DNA from: Martelella mediterranea
Lineage (GTDB): Bacteria; Pseudomonadota; Alphaproteobacteria; Rhizobiales; Rhizobiaceae
DNA: 45,396 nt
Assembly: GCF_004342225.1 (NCBI RefSeq)
Contig: NZ_SMAR01000031.1
Coordinates: forward strand, 1 to 45,396
Direction of reading: 5' to 3'
The notes under the pieces were generated by a model, which worked only from the letters and a program-made list of their open reading frames with translations, was not told the origin of the DNA and did no database searches. This document shows, piece after piece, positions 1,948 through 23,209 of this stretch (position 1 is the stretch's first letter; every line of letters starts with the position of its first letter). The position numbers were made by a program, and so were the translations under genes.

Positions 1948-3480
1948 ATGCGATATCTTGATATTGAGTTTTCTCCTGATTTTCTCTCGGCAAAAAAAGA
2001 CGGAGATGAGCGCAAGATATCTTTTACCCGCCAGGAGCGGATACTGCTGCGGCACTTTACCGCCAATAATATGCGTCTTTTGCAACGCAATGATCTGCTC
2101 GCCGTAATCGATGGTGAAAATACAGCAGCCGGTGATCGCCATATCGATTTTCTGGTGAATAAGTTGCGCCGCAATCTGGGTGATAGCGCGCGCAATCCAC
2201 GCTTTATCCGCACTCAATATGGCGAAGGCTATATCTGGATTGCCGAGAAATCCGACCCGGACAAAGATGACACCGCGTGCTTCATGTGCATTGGTCCGGT
2301 ATATGGGCTGGAGCGCGGTGGTGAAGAGGCAGAACACTGTGTATCCCAGCTGCGGGATGAATTGCAGGCCGGTCTCGGCGCAGAAAAGAGCGTCACGCTG
2401 TCGCACGGAAAAGAGCGACCAGACTGTGAGTTCACGCTTGAGGTTCATATACACAGATATCATAGCACACTTCATATGGCGCTGATTCTGCAAAGAGATG
2501 GCGAGATTATCGCGATCGAGCGACTCGACCGGCAGCATCATTCCAACAATACCGGTGCTGACACCATAATTCAGAATATATGGACCTATCTCGCGTTACC
2601 GCCGGCAGGCAATGGACGCCCCGGAGATACACCGATCTGGATTCGCCAGCATGATGCCGCTTTGCTTTTGAGCACCGGTCAATCCGGCGTCAGCTGGCGC
2701 GAAAATGCGAGAAAGCTGCAACGGGCAAAGCACTCAGCCCCGGAAGACAAGCGCCTCGACATCATGTGGGGCCTTAACCTCTATGTCCGGTTGCTGCAGA
2801 GCATGAGCGAGCGCGATGAATGGCTTTCCCAGAAAGAGTGGGACAGCATTGAACATGAGATCGAAGATATATGCCTCGCAAGACTCCCCGGCCTTTCCGA
2901 AATACCGGAGATGAAACTGGCAACCGCCAAGTTAATGATCTTCATCAACAGGGGGCATACGGATCGCGCAGAACTGCTCATCGATGAAGCATTGCAGAAA
3001 AGCGCATCCTTCGCGACCATTGTTTCACTGAGAGGCCAGATCAGTGCCAATCGCGGCCATATCAGAGAGGCCTGCGCCCTCTACGATGAAGCGATCACAC
3101 TATCGGATCCGGGCAGCGAATTTTATATCTACCTCCACGTCCTGAAGGCCGCAGCATTTAGGGCCGGAGCACAACACGAAGAGCTTGCGACTCTATCCGC
3201 AATGTTTCGCCAGCATCTGCCGGTCGCACATCAGCAACTTAAGATGCTGCTGGAACCAGACTTTGAAATCGATCCTTCGGAGCCAATATGGAATGGTACG
3301 GAGCTGACTTCGACAACAGCACAGAGCATGCTTCAGCATCTCTTCCGAATTTTCGGCCGTCACTTTGAACATCGCAGGCATCGCAAAAATATTATGGACC
3401 GACCGATACAGATTCTGACAGGCCTTTTCAGCGAAAGTGTCGTCAGCGACGAGATAAGAGCCAGTATTTGCAGGGCCTGA
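1948..3480 (+). CDS. OmpR-type winged-helix regulator with helical-repeat C-terminal region
   Basis: A 510-aa protein. Residues about 1-100 form an OmpR/PhoB-type winged helix (FTRQERILLRHF, then HIDFLVNKLRRNLGD, then the wing FIRTQYGEGYIWIA). There is no receiver domain in front of it and no clear transmembrane segment behind it. The C-terminal 400 residues are mostly helical; about 320-400 (HTDRAELLIDEALQKSA, GHIREACALYDEAITL) look like TPR-type repeats. The layout resembles HilA/CadC-like regulators whose sensing part is C-terminal. It sits immediately upstream of the subtilisin autotransporter and is a candidate regulator of it (inference). The ATG at 1948 has a purine-rich but weak ribosome site. 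Confidence 0.75.
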   Translation: MRYLDIEFSPDFLSAKKDGDERKISFTRQERILLRHFTANNMRLLQRNDLLAVIDGENTAAGDRHIDFLVNKLRRNLGDSARNPRFIRTQYGEGYIWIAEKSDPDKDDTACFMCIGPVYGLERGGEEAEHCVSQLRDELQAGLGAEKSVTLSHGKERPDCEFTLEVHIHRYHSTLHMALILQRDGEIIAIERLDRQHHSNNTGADTIIQNIWTYLALPPAGNGRPGDTPIWIRQHDAALLLSTGQSGVSWRENARKLQRAKHSAPEDKRLDIMWGLNLYVRLLQSMSERDEWLSQKEWDSIEHEIEDICLARLPGLSEIPEMKLATAKLMIFINRGHTDRAELLIDEALQKSASFATIVSLRGQISANRGHIREACALYDEAITLSDPGSEFYIYLHVLKAAAFRAGAQHEELATLSAMFRQHLPVAHQQLKMLLEPDFEIDPSEPIWNGTELTSTTAQSMLQHLFRIFGRHFEHRRHRKNIMDRPIQILTGLFSESVVSDEIRASICRA

Positions 3481-3692
3481 CTGGCCGGGGCACGGCTATA
3501 GCAGGCCCAGTCCATCTCCTCTGAAGACTAAAAAATGCAGAGAAAGGCCTCAGCAAATACTCAGCAAACAATTTTATGCAATGAGGGCATCTCAAAGGCG
3601 TTTTTTTCCAAAGTCCGGTTTTATGTTAGGTTTTCCTGATTGTCCGGAACGAATTGCGCCGTATCTTTGTGAAAACAAAAGACAGAAAGTCT

Positions 3693-6600
3693 ATGATGCG
3701 TTTTCTGACTGTCTCTGCGTGTGCCCCAAAACGCACTACTCGGCGCCGTGCAGCGATACTGCTTCTCACCTCGGCCTTGATCGGAACTTCACAGGCCTCA
3801 GCGCTTGGCGCGACCACAACACCGCCCGACAGAGAAAACGCTGCAGGAGTGTTTTCGGCAAAAGCGATTACTGACGCACTCGACAAGGCAGAGACATATG
3901 GTCGTCAGTCCTTTCTGGCGAGCATCGTCGAAAATACGCGACTGACGCCGGAGCGTGCTGACATGATCAGCGAACGTGCGATTGCGCTACGGCCTGATCT
4001 TGCGCAGAGCATCACACGCGCCGTTCAGTCCGGAAGGCATCTGGCGAGCCGTTACCCCGGAAAATCCCTTGCAGCGGGCACTTCGTCAATAACAAAGTCC
4101 TCTTCCTCTGGCCCCTTCCCTTACCCCGGTGGAAATCCGGGCATCCCGAAAAGCCAGCTCAGCGAGTATCAGCGCAATTATTCGCTTGATGCCATGCATG
4201 CAGATGCCGCACTTGAAAAAGGTTTTACAGGCAAAGGTGTGGTTGTCGGGGTCATTGATACAGGCATTGCCATCAGCCCCAATGGGACAGTGCATCCTGA
4301 ATTTGCGGGGCGGATCGACCCTCGCTCAAAAAGTTATCTTCACTGGTTTGATACCAGCGTTGAAGGTGATCACCTGACCCCGGAGCAGTTCAAGGCTGCT
4401 TTTCAACAAGGGCCGGATGATTCTTATGATATTGATGGCCACGGGACCCATGTTTCCGGCATTATCGGCGCAGGGCGGAACGGGTTCGGCATGGAAGGCG
4501 TGGCACCGCAGGCCACCATCCTTTCCGTCGGCGCGATACCGGGAGGCGATGGTGAAGTCTTTGTCGATGGCGAGGATTTTGATATCGATGAGTTGCAGTA
4601 TTGCGGTCCGTCGATACTGAATGGTTCCTGCGAACCTGTTACGGGGTCGCGTGTTCCCGATACGGTCGGTTTTGAATACCTGTCTCAGTTTTCGGATGTG
4701 AAAGTCATCAATGGAAGCTTCGGCGCCACGGCCGAGCCAAACCAGACGACCTGGGATATGCCTGTAGATGAACAGCCGCAGTTTATGGCCGATGCCAAAG
4801 CAATGCGGAAAAGCCTCGATGCCGGGCAGGTGATCGTCATGTCTGCCGGTAACGAATACGATATTGCTCCGGTTCTGGCAGAAAATCCCTTTAGCAGCGG
4901 ATTATTCCCTTTCATCCAGCCCGAAAATCAGGGCGCGACCAATTCTCAAGGCGAGCTGATCTATGACGATCATGGTACCGGGCTTGATCTGAGCTTCACA
5001 TCAGCTGAGGCGCTGGCAGCTGCAGAGGCCCAGGATGGCAAAGCCCGCGGACGCATTGTCGTTGTCGTCGCGCTCGATGCCTATAATCAGATCGCCAGCT
5101 ACTCGAACCGATGCGGTGTAGCCAGACAATGGTGTATTTCTGCGCCGGGTGGTGACCAGCCGTCAGGCGCAGACAGCGGCATTTACTCGACAGTGCCTGA
5201 GGATCTGGTTGCAAGTGGCTATGACTCCTACTCCGGCACGTCTATGGCTGCACCGAATGTTTCCGGTGCAATCGCGGTTCTAACCGAGGCATACCCGGCA
5301 CTGACGCCGGCTGAGATCCTCAATGTGCTGTTCCTGACGGCTGAAGATCTCGGGGCCTCGGGCGTTGATGATGTCTATGGCTGGGGCCTTGTCCGGCTTG
5401 ATCGTGCCCTGTCTGCAGGACCTGTCAATATGACGGGTAACGGTGTTTATACCGTTGGCGCGGATAATGCCGACACGACCTGGGTCGCATCTTTTGAAAG
5501 CGATGGCAGCCTGGAAAAGAAAGGCACCGGCACACTCACCGTTTCCGGTGCTGCGACTTTCAGGCAAGGCATTGTTATCGATGGTGGCCTGCTGGACGCT
5601 GATGGCTATCTCACCACTCCGTCAGTCATGATCGGACAGAACGCGACACTGGGCGGCAGCGGGTTTATCGAAGGCGATGTCGACGTATCGGGCAGGCTTG
5701 CGCCGGGGAATTCACCCGGCACGCTGATTGTATCAGGTGATGTGACACTGAATGCAAGTGCCACCACGGCAATAGAAATTGATGGAACCGGAACAGAAAA
5801 TGGTGCAGGCAATTATGACCGCATCCTCCTGTCGGGGAACGGCAATCTGTTCACAGCAGGCGGAATACTGAACCCACAATTACGCGGCATCACCGGATCG
5901 GCGATCAACAGCTTTGTGCCGCAACCGGGTGCGCTCTTCACATTCGCGTCAGCGCCGAATGGCAGCGTGACGGGCAGTTTTGATGTCCTTGTCCAGCCTG
6001 CAAGCGGCCTGCCTGCTGGCACACGCTTCGATGTTCTCTATCACGATACCGCACTTTCGCTCGCCACCACCCCTGAACGCTACGGAACACTTGAGACACT
6101 GGGCATTCAGACAGGCATCAACGAAAAGGCGCTTGGCCGGGCCATTGATGCCACGCGCCCTGCAGCGGGGCAGCGGCCGGATGCGGCCTACAATGACGGG
6201 TATAACGCGCTTTATGCCGCAAGCCTTGGCGATCTTGAATCCGGCATGTCGTCGATGACTGGCCAGATCCATGTGGAAATGGGAACGACAGCCGTCCGCG
6301 CCGTCGGCCGTTTTGCCGATACAATCGGTGAGCGGCAAATGGAACTGGCTGCTGGCTGGATGTCGGCCAACGAGACGGCATATGGCACCGGCACGGCCTG
6401 GGTCGCCGGCAATACGGTCTCAACCGATATCGGTGCATCCGGCGGTCTGTCAGGCTATGATTCGACCGCCGATAGCGGCGTTTTCGGTCTCGACTGGCAA
6501 TTCAGTGAAGGCGTCGCCGGTATCGCTGCATCCTATGAGTACGCCGATGTCGGGGCTGGCACAAACGGGTCCGGCAATATCGACACCTATCAGGGCGCGG

Positions 6601-7202
6601 TTTACGGCACCTTGGATGCGGGCTTGATGGCTTTTTCCGCGCGCGCAGGCTTTTCCTACGGTGATCTTTCGACGAGCCGGGAAACGTCGCTTGGCTCCTA
6701 TCATGCGACTGCCAGTGCGCGTGGTCACGGTACAGGTGGATTTATCGAAGCCTCCGCATTTCGTAAGCTTGATACGAATGTGATGACACTGACGCCGTCT
6801 GCCACATTCGGCTACAAAGGTTTTCACCGCCACAGCATGCGGGAAACCGGCAGCGCACTTGGGCTTTCACTTCCTTCCGAAACCTTTGAGGAAACCCAGA
6901 CAACACTTGCCATGGCATTTTCCAGAGACATCGTATTTGACAACGGCCTGCGGCTGGAACCGCTTCTAAGCCTTGGCTGGCGACATGATTACGGCGACGT
7001 CAGCCGTTCTTCAGAGTCCGGCATTTTTGGCGGGAATTTCGAGGTGAACGGGGCCGATATCGGAGCCGATGCCTTTGTCGGGCGCATCGCAATGGCGGCC
7101 AGGGCCAATAACCGTTTCTCTTTTGAGGCGGCTTACGAAGGTGAATTTCGTGAAAACCTTCAGAGCCACGTCTTCTCAGCCAGGGCCAGCCTTAGTTTCT
7201 GA
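3693..7202 (+). CDS. Subtilisin-family (S8) autotransporter serine protease
   Basis: A type Va secreted protease of about 1169 aa. Numbered from the ATG at 3693, a signal peptide covers about residues 1-37. The S8 domain follows with catalytic Asp189 (VIDTG), His250 (DGHGTHVSG), oxyanion Asn387 (SAGN) and Ser517 (GTSMAAP). A passenger-associated repeat follows (GTGTLTVSGAATF, then GRLAPGNSPGTL). The last ~280 residues form an autotransporter beta-barrel ending in Phe. The frame is open to a TTG at 3654, and neither start has a strong ribosome site. The inhibitor lipoprotein gene begins 22 bp downstream. All catalytic residues are present, so the enzyme should be active at the cell surface; substrates are unknown. 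Confidence 0.9.
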   Translation: MMRFLTVSACAPKRTTRRRAAILLLTSALIGTSQASALGATTTPPDRENAAGVFSAKAITDALDKAETYGRQSFLASIVENTRLTPERADMISERAIALRPDLAQSITRAVQSGRHLASRYPGKSLAAGTSSITKSSSSGPFPYPGGNPGIPKSQLSEYQRNYSLDAMHADAALEKGFTGKGVVVGVIDTGIAISPNGTVHPEFAGRIDPRSKSYLHWFDTSVEGDHLTPEQFKAAFQQGPDDSYDIDGHGTHVSGIIGAGRNGFGMEGVAPQATILSVGAIPGGDGEVFVDGEDFDIDELQYCGPSILNGSCEPVTGSRVPDTVGFEYLSQFSDVKVINGSFGATAEPNQTTWDMPVDEQPQFMADAKAMRKSLDAGQVIVMSAGNEYDIAPVLAENPFSSGLFPFIQPENQGATNSQGELIYDDHGTGLDLSFTSAEALAAAEAQDGKARGRIVVVVALDAYNQIASYSNRCGVARQWCISAPGGDQPSGADSGIYSTVPEDLVASGYDSYSGTSMAAPNVSGAIAVLTEAYPALTPAEILNVLFLTAEDLGASGVDDVYGWGLVRLDRALSAGPVNMTGNGVYTVGADNADTTWVASFESDGSLEKKGTGTLTVSGAATFRQGIVIDGGLLDADGYLTTPSVMIGQNATLGGSGFIEGDVDVSGRLAPGNSPGTLIVSGDVTLNASATTAIEIDGTGTENGAGNYDRILLSGNGNLFTAGGILNPQLRGITGSAINSFVPQPGALFTFASAPNGSVTGSFDVLVQPASGLPAGTRFDVLYHDTALSLATTPERYGTLETLGIQTGINEKALGRAIDATRPAAGQRPDAAYNDGYNALYAASLGDLESGMSSMTGQIHVEMGTTAVRAVGRFADTIGERQMELAAGWMSANETAYGTGTAWVAGNTVSTDIGASGGLSGYDSTADSGVFGLDWQFSEGVAGIAASYEYADVGAGTNGSGNIDTYQGAVYGTLDAGLMAFSARAGFSYGDLSTSRETSLGSYHATASARGHGTGGFIEASAFRKLDTNVMTLTPSATFGYKGFHRHSMRETGSALGLSLPSETFEETQTTLAMAFSRDIVFDNGLRLEPLLSLGWRHDYGDVSRSSESGIFGGNFEVNGADIGADAFVGRIAMAARANNRFSFEAAYEGEFRENLQSHVFSARASLSF

Positions 7203-20143: not shown

Positions 20144-20290
20144 TCGGAGCCTCCGGTGAGTGCTGAAGCGTGGTAACGCCAGTCTCGTCGGTCTGCTCCG
20201 AATGGACAACCTACTGAAAGCTCACATCTAGGCTCAGGACCTATTAATTTGGCTTGAGATGTGATTCACGGTTTCCGGAAGGAGACCGTG

Positions 20291-21045
20291 ATGAGTGATT
20301 TGTTTCTGCTGAGTGAGGGCCAGATGGCTCGGATAGCGCCGCATTTTCCCTTGGCGCATGGTGTTCCACGTGTTGATGATCGCCGTGTCGTCAGCGGTAT
20401 TGTTTACGTCATCAAACATGGCCTGCAGTGGAAGGATGCGCCCAAGGATTACGGGCCGCATAAAACACTTTATAACCGTTTCATTCGTTGGAGCCGACTT
20501 GGCGTGTTCGACCGCATCTTCGCGGCGCTGGCCGGTCAAGGTCCCAGGCCCGAACGCATCATGATCGACGCCACGCACCTGAAAGCGCATCGCACAGCGG
20601 CGAGCCTGCTAAAAAAGGGGATGTTCCCCGTCGTATCGGGCGAACCAAAGGCGGGTTGAACTCCAAACTGCACACCGTCTGTGATGGCGAGGGGCGCCCG
20701 ATCATCATGCTGCTTTCCGAAGGCCAGATGAGCGATCATAAGGGCGCTCGGCTCGTGCTTGATGTCTTGCCGCCAGCCAAGACGCTGATTCCTGATCGCG
20801 GATATGACAGCAAGATCTTCCGGGAAGCATTGCAGGCAAAGGGGATAGAGCCCTGTATTCCCTCGAGCCGAAGCAGAAAAGTGCCATATCCATATGACAA
20901 GGCACTCTACAAGAAACGCCACAAGGTCGAGAACCTGTTCGCCAAACTCAAGGACTGGCGGCGCATCGCAACGCGTTACGACCGCTGCGCGCATACCTTC
21001 TTCTCAAGCATATGCATCGCAGCTGCCGTCAGCTTCTGGCTCTGA
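20291..21045 (+). CDS. IS5/IS427 transposase, two frames joined by -1 frameshift
   Basis: The ATG at 20291 follows AAGGAGACCGTG. The first frame (to 20659) carries the N-terminal domain and the first catalytic Asp (MIDATHLKAHRT). At 20611-20617 the heptamer A AAA AAG lies with AAA and AAG as zero-frame codons, the classical -1 slippery site. The second frame continues KKGDVPRR and supplies LIPDRGYDSK (Asp) and KKRHKVENLFAKLKDWRR (Glu). The fused product is about 251 aa. The coding part is intact; only the right end of the element was split by the later insertion ten bases after the stop. Confidence 0.85.
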
Positions 21046-21160
21046 TTTAACGAGATGCTGTAAAGGGGCCTGCGCCGTGCACGACCAGCCCAAGCATCTT
21101 GCAATTGCTCATGGCAAGCTGTCGCTGTTCCCGTATCAGTCTCAATCGGAGGAATACGGG

Positions 21161-22192
21161 ATGAAGCTGTTTATCGGACTGGATGTATCACTGGCGAAGA
21201 CCGCCGTCTGTGTGATCAATGAGTATGGCAAGATCGCAAAGGAGGCGCAGGTTCCCAGTGATCCCCAGGCGATCGTGGACTTTGCAAACACCCTGGAGGG
21301 AGCGGTCGCCATCATCGGACTGGAAGCCGGACGGCTGTCCCAATGGCTGCATCGCGGCCTGGTCGGTGCTAGGCTGCATGTTGTCCTGATGGAAACCCGG
21401 CAAGTGAAGGGTGCTCTGAAGGCAATGCCGATCAAAACGGATCGGCGCGACGCAGAAGGAATTGCCCGACTGCTTCACATGGGCTGGTTCAGGCCTGTAC
21501 ATTGCAAATCCGTGTCGGCACAGGAGGTTCGCGCGCTTTTGGCTGCCCGCAAGGCGATCCAGCAGGGCATGATCGCGCTGGAGCTATCTCTACGCGGACT
21601 GCTGAGAAACTTTGGCCTGAAGGTTGGCGCCATCTCACGCGGCCAGTTCGACGCCCGGATTAGGAAATTGGTGGATGGCAATGCCATGCTGCAAGCAGCG
21701 GCCGGGCCGATGTTACGTGCACGTGCAAGCCTGCGCCAGGAACTAGCCGGGCTCGAACGTCAGGTCCGTCTGCTTGCGAAGGATGACGCGGTGTGCCGGC
21801 TGTTGATGACGATGCCGGGGATTGGGGCGGTCGTCGCCTTGACTTTCCGATCCGCTGTCGATGATCCCGCGCGGTTCTCGTCATCCAAGAAAGTTGATCC
21901 ATGGGTTGGCCTTACACCATCGCGCAACCAGTCCGGTGAGCGCGACGTGATCGGCGGCATTACGCGTGCTGGCGACGCCAATCTGCGAAGAGCCTTGTGC
22001 CAAGCGGCTACCGTCATGATCCATCGGGGCCGCTCGACATGGCTGAGAAGCTGGGCTGCACAGGTTGCCAAACGCCGAGGTGCAAAGCGCGCGATGGTGG
22101 CTTTGGCAAGGCGCATAGGCACAATCCTGCACCGGATGTGGAGGGATGGTACGGAATTCTCCACAGTCCCGTTGATCGCCAAATCGGCCTGA
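21161..22192 (+). CDS. IS110/IS1111-family DEDD transposase
   Basis: A 343-aa recombinase. The ATG at 21161 follows GGAGG. The N-terminal RuvC-like domain has Asp8 (FIGLDVS), Glu55 (GLEAG) and Asp94/Asp97 (KTDRRDAEGIA). The C-terminal Tnp domain shows MTMPGIGAVVALTF and the serine motif GLTPSRNQSGE with GDANLRRALCQA. These enzymes use a guide RNA from the element's non-coding end to choose donor and target. All motifs are intact. The last nine codons lie inside the 372-bp repeat, so a non-expressed copy of the gene tail recurs at about 22537-22564. Confidence 0.92.
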   Translation: MKLFIGLDVSLAKTAVCVINEYGKIAKEAQVPSDPQAIVDFANTLEGAVAIIGLEAGRLSQWLHRGLVGARLHVVLMETRQVKGALKAMPIKTDRRDAEGIARLLHMGWFRPVHCKSVSAQEVRALLAARKAIQQGMIALELSLRGLLRNFGLKVGAISRGQFDARIRKLVDGNAMLQAAAGPMLRARASLRQELAGLERQVRLLAKDDAVCRLLMTMPGIGAVVALTFRSAVDDPARFSSSKKVDPWVGLTPSRNQSGERDVIGGITRAGDANLRRALCQAATVMIHRGRSTWLRSWAAQVAKRRGAKRAMVALARRIGTILHRMWRDGTEFSTVPLIAKSA

Positions 22193-22536
22193 GCGTTTAT
22201 AGCAGAACCATGTCGTTGAAGTCTGTCTGACCGCAGACCTTCGAGGCCCCAACAGGGACGCGGTTCCGATGATGCCGTGGTCAGGACTGTCGCCGGCCTC
22301 GGTCGAGCACGCCAACGAGATGGGCACATCGGAATTGCCGCACTGGACCAGCATCATGTTGGCAGCCATCGCGCTGACCACGGACCGAAGCATGAACCCG
22401 GGGCGACCTCAAACGAAGGGCAAAGCAAGCCAGGCATCGGCGAAAGGGAATCTGTCGGATTATTTACCGCATTGGCAGCCTGACGGCGCTGCTGCGGTCC
22501 TTACTTTTTGCTTAACTGAAACGGCCCCGTTACCGA
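22193..22536 (+). ncRNA. Predicted guide (bridge/seek) RNA region, copy 1
   Basis: IS1111-type elements encode their guide RNA in the non-coding end downstream of the transposase; this 344-bp region is that end and has no real ORF. TCAGGACTGTCG (22281-22292) contains the complement of the IS5 target AGTCCTGA across the AG core. CAGCATC (22349-22355) is the complement of the element's left end GATGCTG. Near the start, GAAGTCTG and CAGACCTTC can pair. RNA ends and fold are not determined; the call is from position plus guide matches. Confidence 0.5.
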
Positions 22537-22564
22537 AGTCCCGTTGATCGCCAAATCGGCCTGA

Positions 22565-22908
22565 GCGTTTATAGCAGAACCATGTCGTTGAAGTCTGTCT
22601 GACCGCAGACCTTCGAGGCCCCAACAGGGACGCGGTTCCGATGATGCCGTGGTCAGGACTGTCGCCGGCCTCGGTCGAGCACGCCAACGAGATGGGCACA
22701 TCGGAATTGCCGCACTGGACCAGCATCATGTTGGCAGCCATCGCGCTGACCACGGACCGAAGCATGAACCCGGGGCGACCTCAAACGAAGGGCAAAGCAA
22801 GCCAGGCATCGGCGAAAGGGAATCTGTCGGATTATTTACCGCATTGGCAGCCTGACGGCGCTGCTGCGGTCCTTACTTTTTGCTTGGCTGAAACGGCCCC
22901 GTTACCGA
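22565..22908 (+). ncRNA. Predicted guide RNA region, copy 2
   Basis: This is the second copy of the right-end non-coding region, carrying the same target-like stretch at 22653-22664 and the same left-end complement at 22721-22727. It directly precedes the true right boundary of the element. Whether one or both copies are transcribed is unknown. Confidence 0.45.
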
Positions 22909-22921
22909 AGTCCTGAGCCTA

Positions 22922-23209
22922 GTTGTTTGATCCCAGATTTTGATGGCGCAATTTTCTCATATGAATGGAGGGAAGCACTATGGGCCAGATTCTACACGGC
23001 AGCGCCACGACGACTGAGGCAGTCCGTCCTGGTATTCGTGGGTCAACCCTAACACCCGAAGCATAAGCACAAAGCTGACAAGCAGGTGTCGTCGTCGCCG
23101 ACAAGATCTATGGCTGTTGGAGCCCCTATGATGGGGAGCGTTGAGGGCAACCATATTTTCCGTGCTTCGTGCGGAAGGATCGTCCTTGGGCAAGCGACAA
23201 GCGGTACGA
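22922..23209 (+). pseudogene. IS481-like transposase remnant
   Basis: At 22980 an ATG after GGAGGG starts MGQILHGSATTTEAVR, the well-known N-terminus of a group of IS481-family transposases. The frame then fails within about 12 codons, and pieces in other frames to about 23120 (VNPNT, KHKADKQVSSS) only loosely recall the following HTH. No DDE domain remains. The rest of this stretch up to the DUF2264 stop holds nothing I can identify. The IS5-type element appears to have inserted in the leader of this remnant. Confidence 0.6.

What the first reader, a model, noticed from the sequence alone, without database searches (positions are those of the whole stretch)
21055..22908. IS1111-type element carrying two tandem copies of its guide-RNA end
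Seen: the whole right non-coding end of this IS110-family element (344 bp plus the transposase tail) is duplicated as a 372-bp tandem repeat with only two differing bases. Known: IS110-family recombinases use an RNA encoded in a non-coding end, downstream of the gene in the IS1111 subgroup, to specify donor and target. Inference: the element has two guide-RNA genes and two possible right ends. Divergence of one copy would allow a second target specificity while the first is kept, a natural route to retargeting.
Basis: partly seen in the sequence, partly recalled or inferred. Interest (0 to 1): 0.78.

Follow-up and report, generated by a model that had tools for sequence, protein, structure and literature searches.

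The report
Jumping element with doubled guide-RNA end
A bacterial jumping gene that uses a small RNA to choose its landing site carries that RNA gene and its right end twice in a row; a like doubling arose separately in Mesorhizobium, with seams at the points the element's enzyme is thought to cut, but this particular copy looks worn out and its two RNAs are the same.

Summary
An IS1111-type element (21053-22908) carries its whole right end, predicted guide-RNA gene included, as two 372-bp copies (22165-22536, 22537-22908) differing at two bases. A covariance model built without this element finds a full guide RNA in each copy. Its guides match the flanks: the element sits at the end of an IS5-type element, and empty sites in relatives fix the borders. 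The two RNAs are identical, so there is one specificity, not two. This copy looks decayed: both inter-copy differences hit a TTGAC motif present in all 36 right ends compared, and transposase, left repeat and RNA carry changes at otherwise invariant positions. Doubling is not unique. A separate event, at one site in two Mesorhizobium genomes (one on a 6.46-Mb contig), stands beside single-end alleles in four others; that element looks intact. In each end duplication I retained (three firm right-end cases, one truncated, one at a left end) the seam lies at the AG core of an element end. I infer ectopic exchange at the core by the element's recombinase, as in published IS621 off-target recombination, rather than random slippage. 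Retargeting by divergence is not seen. Known family, new variant, moderate interest.

The parts
20228..21052 (+). left part of the IS5-type element that serves as target: terminal repeat CTAGGCTCAGGAC at 20228, transposase remnant 20488-21045
   Evidence: Pfam DDE_Tnp_1; terminal repeats; uninterrupted relatives at 76-89% identity
21053..21070 (+). left end: 7-bp extension AGATGCT, then subterminal repeat GTAAAGGGGCC (relatives GTAAC or GTAAT)
21161..22192 (+). IS1111-type transposase, 343 aa, open; P58R and G246D at positions invariant in 32 of 32 aligned relatives
22165..22536 (+). right-end copy 1 (inner): last 28 bp of the transposase gene, guide-RNA gene, right end
22165..22166 (+). internal AG (CAC-AG-TCCCGTTG) that the inner right end is joined to
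22246..22396 (+). guide RNA 1 (predicted): guides for right target 22280-22288, left target 22311-22319, left end 22350-22355, right end 22382-22390
   Evidence: models R1 and R2; guide letters and coordinates checked
22512..22516 (+). TTAAC in copy 1 where relatives have TTGAC (probably the -35 half of the circle-junction promoter; my inference)
22523..22536 (+). inner right end: GGCCCCGTTAC plus CGA, followed by AG
22537..22908 (+). right-end copy 2 (outer)
22618..22768 (+). guide RNA 2 (predicted), identical to guide RNA 1
22884..22888 (+). TTGGC in copy 2 where relatives have TTGAC
22895..22908 (+). outer right end: GGCCCCGTTAC plus CGA
22909..22922 (+). right flank AGTCCTGAGCCTAG: core AG plus the terminal repeat of the interrupted IS5-type element

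Best explanation
This is an IS1111-type, RNA-guided insertion sequence lying in the end of an IS5-type element. Its guide-RNA-bearing right end was duplicated in place when the right-end core (CCGA-AG) was joined to an internal AG about nine codons before the transposase stop (CAC-AG-TCCCG) on another copy of the same DNA. I think the element's own recombinase made or started this exchange: either right-end core with pseudo-core between sister copies, or insertion of a circular copy at the pseudo-core followed by homologous loss of one transposase repeat. Both routes give exactly the observed order. The result has two identical guide-RNA genes and two possible right ends. In this genome the element has since decayed and probably does nothing. 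Shown: the anatomy, two identical predicted guide RNAs, guide-target match, borders, recurrence, seams at the core. Inferred: recombinase involvement, RNA expression, inactivity.
For: Right-end RNA found in 79 of 84 relative loci. Consensus fold of 40 sequences: 34 pairs, 16 with at least one change on both sides. In the 25 loci where both flanks and the guide could be read automatically (not all independent), guides fit their own flanks better than shuffled ones: right 7.12 v 4.91 nt (best of 500 shuffles 5.92), left 4.56 v 2.83 (best 3.44). Same-site alleles: G713 and G1188 with two right ends, G1207, G1112, G717 and G718 with one. Seams include the core at an element end: window AGTCC, L037 GAAG, L089 ACAGAAGCA, L081 AG, and at the left end of L023 GAGATGC. 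A uniform null for the two firm right-end cases not used to notice the pattern (L037, L089) gives 1.5e-4 to 6e-6. Microhomology does not pick the site: in the window 2 of 78 AG sites share more with the right-end junction (7 and 6 bp) than the used one (5 bp) and 5 tie with it; in L037 10 of 66 share more (5-7 bp against 4). Precedent: of 117 IS621 off-target insertions 102 kept the core and 56 closely resembled target or donor, and deletions and inversions between sites were seen rarely (PMC11208160, passages). Decay.
Against: All seams carry 2-9 bp of shared sequence, as slippage would. The pseudo-sites fit the guides poorly: the window site only the core-proximal right half (AGTCC), L037 only GAAG. 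L081 is cut by a contig end and its copies are 96% alike; L089 is from a MAG. L059, a 91-bp duplication whose distal end lies about 11 bp outside the core, was dropped because of an N at its join; if real it is a counter-example. The null is crude and post hoc. No expression or transposition data.
Confidence: 0.6

Rival explanations
1. Plain replication slippage or microhomology-mediated duplication between AGTCC repeats; the transposase played no part, and the position at the element end is luck or selection.
For: Every seam has 2-9 bp of microhomology; units of 160-372 bp are ordinary for slippage (general knowledge); duplications that spare the transposase would be tolerated.
Against: In the window, L037 and L089 (and L081 as far as it goes) the distal breakpoint is the right-end core, and in L023 the left-end core; breakpoints in the flank or elsewhere in the right end were not seen in the 84 element loci scanned, apart from the dropped L059. 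Longer shared sequences were not used.
Confidence: 0.27
2. The doubled end is an adaptation: two guide-RNA genes raise dosage or let one copy drift to a second target.
For: Both copies keep full predicted guide RNAs; the doubled element of G1188 keeps an open 344-aa transposase, TTGAC in both copies, an intact left repeat and both RNAs.
Against: Guides identical in the three genomes with a whole second RNA (window, G713, G1188); window element decayed; rare: of 385, 297, 28 and 394 genomes scanned with the model, 11, 28, 3 and 48 had a match and only the window's own genome had a doubled RNA (only 7-10 candidates per genome were scored in the large scans, so some could be missed).
Confidence: 0.06
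3. Assembly artefact in a draft contig.
For: Draft of 105 contigs; one of the repeats seen in relatives, L059, is visibly a scaffolding artefact with an N at its join.
Against: The copies differ, and the differences sit beside two different junctions; the same kind of structure occurs in two Mesorhizobium assemblies, one a 6.46-Mb contig.
Confidence: 0.07

Closest known systems
IS1111 family insertion sequences with seekRNA (ISEc11, ISPa11, ISKpn4; PMC11187229: abstract, sections 6, 8, 9 and 13 and search passages seen)
   Same: DEDD plus PF02371 transposase of 343 aa, subterminal repeats, long non-coding region downstream of the gene holding a structured RNA with the top-strand match 5' of the bottom-strand match, no target duplication
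   Different: the right end with its RNA gene is present twice; the target is the end of an IS5-type element; the word tandem does not occur in the main text of that paper
IS110-family bridge RNAs (IS621; PMC11208160, passages seen)
   Same: target and donor guides in one RNA, two-base core, off-target exchange at core-like sites
   Different: in the IS110 group the RNA lies in the left end; the off-target events were measured in a laboratory system, not seen as doubled guide genes in nature
IS4321/IS5075, IS1111-type elements that target the terminal repeats of Tn21-type transposons (title seen in a reference list; otherwise recalled)
   Same: an IS1111-type element that lands in the terminal repeat of another transposable element
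   Different: here the target is an IS5-type element

Membership tests
IS1111 family | DEDD transposase of about 330-350 aa with a PF02371 C-terminal domain | tested here: met
   343 aa, PF01548 and PF02371; the individual catalytic residues were not checked one by one
IS1111 family | subterminal inverted repeats with 7-bp left and 3-bp right extensions | tested here: met
   GTAAAGGGGCC / GGCCCCGTTAC with AGATGCT and CGA; one mismatch peculiar to the window
IS1111 family | longer non-coding region downstream of the gene, encoding a guide RNA | tested here: met
   two covariance-model hits; 79 of 84 relative loci; prediction only
IS1111 family | guide RNA carries matches to both target strands | tested here: met
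   for 25 relatives; in the window 8 of 9 on the right and AACGAG on the left
IS1111 family | no target-site duplication | tested here: met
   empty sites in L241 and L242
IS1111 family | RNA bound by the transposase; circle formation; transposition | not testable with these tools
   needs the bench
element with two guide specificities | the two RNAs differ in their guides | tested here: not met
   RNA regions 22246-22396 and 22618-22768 identical

The most novel reading that the evidence does not exclude
IS1111-type recombinases repeatedly build tandem copies of their own guide-RNA gene by exchange between an end core and core-like sites inside or beside the element. Such doubled ends are stable enough to occur at one site in two species' genomes (Mesorhizobium G713 and G1188), leave a functional-looking element with two right ends, and so offer raw material for new guides while the old one is kept.
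Probability: 0.3. Interest if true: 0.72.

Novelty: new variant of a known kind. Interest (0 to 1): 0.48.

Why it matters
How RNA-guided insertion sequences change target without losing function is open. A natural, recurrent way of doubling the guide-RNA gene, with the seam at the recombinase's own core, would supply the duplicate-then-diverge step and would also show that these enzymes rearrange their own neighbourhood, which bears on the specificity of bridge-RNA tools. The Mesorhizobium site, with single and double alleles at one place, makes it testable.

Tried and rejected
Rfam: no match in 20900-23100 up to E 1, so the RNA had to be modelled here. Own-genome search for a second copy of the element: none. 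Uninterrupted IS5 end in the own genome: only a 99-bp fragment; plasmid relatives used instead. Protein reading of the right end (92- and 91-aa ORFs): no Pfam family. Viral contigs: 12 relatives, 9 with an RNA match, none doubled. Plasmid records with several matches: 6 searched whole, no close same-strand pair; L012 and L014 were not searched there for size. Doubled RNAs in the class (385 genomes), the window's family (297), the family of G376 (28) and the family of G714 (394): none but the window's own. The idea that guide matches pick the internal site: weak, not claimed. That both large duplications begin nine codons before the transposase stop may be chance: 10 and 9 AG sites lie in the 147- and 139-bp stretches examined.

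Rows dropped: L059 (N at the join); L021 (the same 77 bp at both contig ends); L022, L093 and L168/L186 (repeats outside the element); L195 counted with L023 (same sequence over 327 bp). Literature: nine searches of open-licence PMC papers; no listed title or abstract beginning reports duplicated guide-RNA ends. Four papers were opened, in part (PMC11187229, PMC11208160, PMC3281130, PMC3832669), so this is not proof of absence.

Full report
WHAT IS THERE. The window holds an IS1111-type element from 21053 to 22908. Its 343-aa transposase gene (21161-22192) has both IS110-family domains. Downstream, a 372-bp unit occurs twice without a gap: 22165-22536 and 22537-22908, differing only at 22514 and 22515. 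The first unit starts at an AG about nine codons before the transposase stop, and each unit ends at a right end (GGCCCCGTTAC-CGA). The first is followed by the transposase-tail sequence again (AG-TCCCGTTG), the second by the flank (AG-TCCTGAGCCTAG). The genome (105 contigs) shows no other copy.

BORDERS AND TARGET. The flanks are the two parts of an IS5-type element with terminal repeats at 20228 and 22909-22922. Uninterrupted IS5-type relatives on plasmids read GATTTAACG|AGTCCTGAGCC (L241, L242), which fixes the insertion point and shows no target duplication. Many relatives have flanks of the same kind. The core shared by target, left end and right end is AG.

GUIDE RNA. A conserved RNA lies in the right end of 79 of 84 relative loci (L011-L094). 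The consensus fold of 40 sequences, the window's copy 1 among them, has 34 pairs, 16 with at least one change on both sides. Model R1 built from them gives two matches in the window's genome at E <= 1e-4, 22246-22396 and 22618-22768, each 1.9e-35. Because R1 contains the window, I built R2 from 38 sequences without the window and L011: it finds the same two places, E 8.3e-34 each, and no other in the window up to E 0.01. Guides can be read directly: GTCAGGACT (reverse complement of the right target, 8 of 9), GCCAACGAG (left target, AACGAG), AGCATC (reverse complement of the left end) and GGACCGAAG (right end, ACCGAAG). The order, top-strand match first, is the one reported for IS1111 seekRNAs (PMC11187229, section 9). 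Over the 25 loci where flanks and guide could be read automatically, own guides fit own flanks better than shuffled ones: mean 7.12 against 4.91 nt on the right and 4.56 against 2.83 on the left, beyond all 500 shuffles. The fit is not uniform: about half have right matches of 4-5 nt, among them L089 and L081, which have partly doubled ends, and also L027, L028, L037-L039, L054, L062, L083 and L088. Rfam has no matching family at E <= 1. All this is prediction; expression was not tested.

TWO RNAs, ONE SPECIFICITY. The RNA stretches of the two copies are identical. The only inter-copy differences turn TTGAC into TTAAC (copy 1) and TTGGC (copy 2). A first pattern found TTGAC in 34 of 34 right ends but demanded CTT there; a second, without that demand, found TTGAC within 22 nt upstream in 36 of 36 right ends from 33 loci. 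These are not all independent elements. Given the reported promoter formed when the ends abut in the circle (PMC11187229, passages), this is probably its -35 half; that reading is mine. Other damage: P58R and G246D in the transposase, invariant in 32 of 32 aligned relatives; 6 replacement against 5 silent changes on the window's branch; GTAAA in the left repeat, where the other 90 left-end matches (not all independent) have GTAAC or GTAAT; and AGGCCCC instead of AGGTCCC at the start of the RNA, seen only in the window's two copies among 81 rows. I conclude that this copy is probably immobile.

RECURRENCE. A scan of loci L004-L094, 84 of them (L011-L094) element loci, for internal direct repeats of 50 bp or more gave 10 rows in 8 loci. 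Retained after inspection: L037 (Mesorhizobium wenxiniae, 357 bp, 100% identical, whole RNA doubled), L089 (Roseicyclus MAG, 160 bp, 100%, doubled from the RNA's last guide to the right end), L081 (MAG, spacing 177, 96%, cut by the contig end) and L023 (a 222-bp duplication of the left flank ending at the left-end core). Dropped: L059 (N at the join), L021, L022, L093. Later loci gave no further element-end duplication beyond re-fetched copies of these and of the window; two pairs of unlike guide RNAs in L163 are described under Noticed in passing. The L037 seam, used as a DNA query in 146 genomes of its genus, had a match in 10: in full in G713 (L037's own genome) and in G1188, in the split single-end form in seven, and a 26-bp stretch in one. 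G1188's contig is 6,461,656 bp. Reading the stretches, G1207, G1112, G717 and G718 carry a single right end at the same site; G1250 is single at another site; G1241 and G1198 could not be parsed by my motifs. G1188 shares with G713 the right flank and only about 100 bp of the left flank. Its two copies differ at one base, before the RNA stretch. Its transposase is open (344 aa) with P58 and G246 kept, TTGAC in both copies and the left repeat intact. One shared event, inherited or transferred, explains both genomes best. So doubling is very likely real, can persist, and is compatible with a working-looking element. It is rare: of 385, 297, 28 and 394 genomes searched with the model, 11, 28, 3 and 48 had a match, and only the window's genome had a doubled RNA. 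In the large scans only 7-10 candidates per genome were scored (G714 gave 7 matches there and 9), so this is a lower bound.

HOW IT AROSE. The seams share little sequence (AGTCC; GAAG; ACAGAAGCA; AG; GAGATGC), but each includes the AG core at an element end. If breakpoints were placed at random over 400 to 2000 bp, the two firm right-end cases not used to notice the pattern (L037, L089) would both hit the core with probability 1.5e-4 to 6e-6 (crude and post hoc). Sites sharing longer sequence were available and not used, in the window (2 of 78 AG sites, 5 more tied) and in L037 (10 of 66). Two routes fit: exchange at the core between sister copies; or insertion of a circular copy at the internal AG followed by homologous loss of the repeated transposase part. 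The left-flank case L023 fits only the first. IS621 made core-preserving off-target insertions (102 of 117) and rare deletions and inversions in the laboratory (PMC11208160, passages). Guide fit at the internal sites is weak, so slippage at a nick made by the recombinase is also possible.

LIMITS. No reads, no expression data, no transposition data. The window's contig is a draft. The named relatives are nearly all alphaproteobacteria by their record titles; I did not test other IS1111 lineages.

Noticed in passing
L163 (Roseicyclus MAG G715 C12), model hits 3435-3588/3863-4014 and 9026-9179/9334-9487, minus strand: Two pairs of adjacent related guide RNAs with different guides. In one, a right end (GTTACAGA-AG) is joined to AG-GTCCC inside the guide-RNA gene of a related element whose own flanks fit its guides; a right-end-like sequence is joined at the matching place in the other.
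   Followed up: partly
L086 (Roseinatronobacter thiooxidans) and L163 3863-4014: This RNA's right guide GGGACCT and left guide CACTGAG resemble a fit to the conserved start of the guide-RNA gene itself (CACCG-AG-GTCCC; AGGTCCC in 67 of 81 rows), as if one element type aims at its relatives' guide genes; its own copy reads AAGTCCC. Against it: L086's own right flank does not fit.
   Followed up: partly
L023 1275-1733: 222-bp tandem duplication of the IS5-type target tail whose seam is the left-end core GAG-ATGC: a mirror image of the right-end duplications, 96% identity.
   Followed up: yes
window 22512-22516 and 22884-22888: The only two differences between the copies fall in the same five-base motif, one change from TTGAC in each copy (about 2e-4 by chance, post hoc).
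   Followed up: partly
L059 2014-2194: 91-bp repeat with an N at the join next to the right end: most likely a scaffolding artefact that mimics a doubled end.
   Followed up: partly
window 3654-7202: Subtilase-type autotransporter (Peptidase_S8 plus autotransporter beta-domain) after a gene with a Trans_reg_C domain (1948-3480).
   Followed up: no
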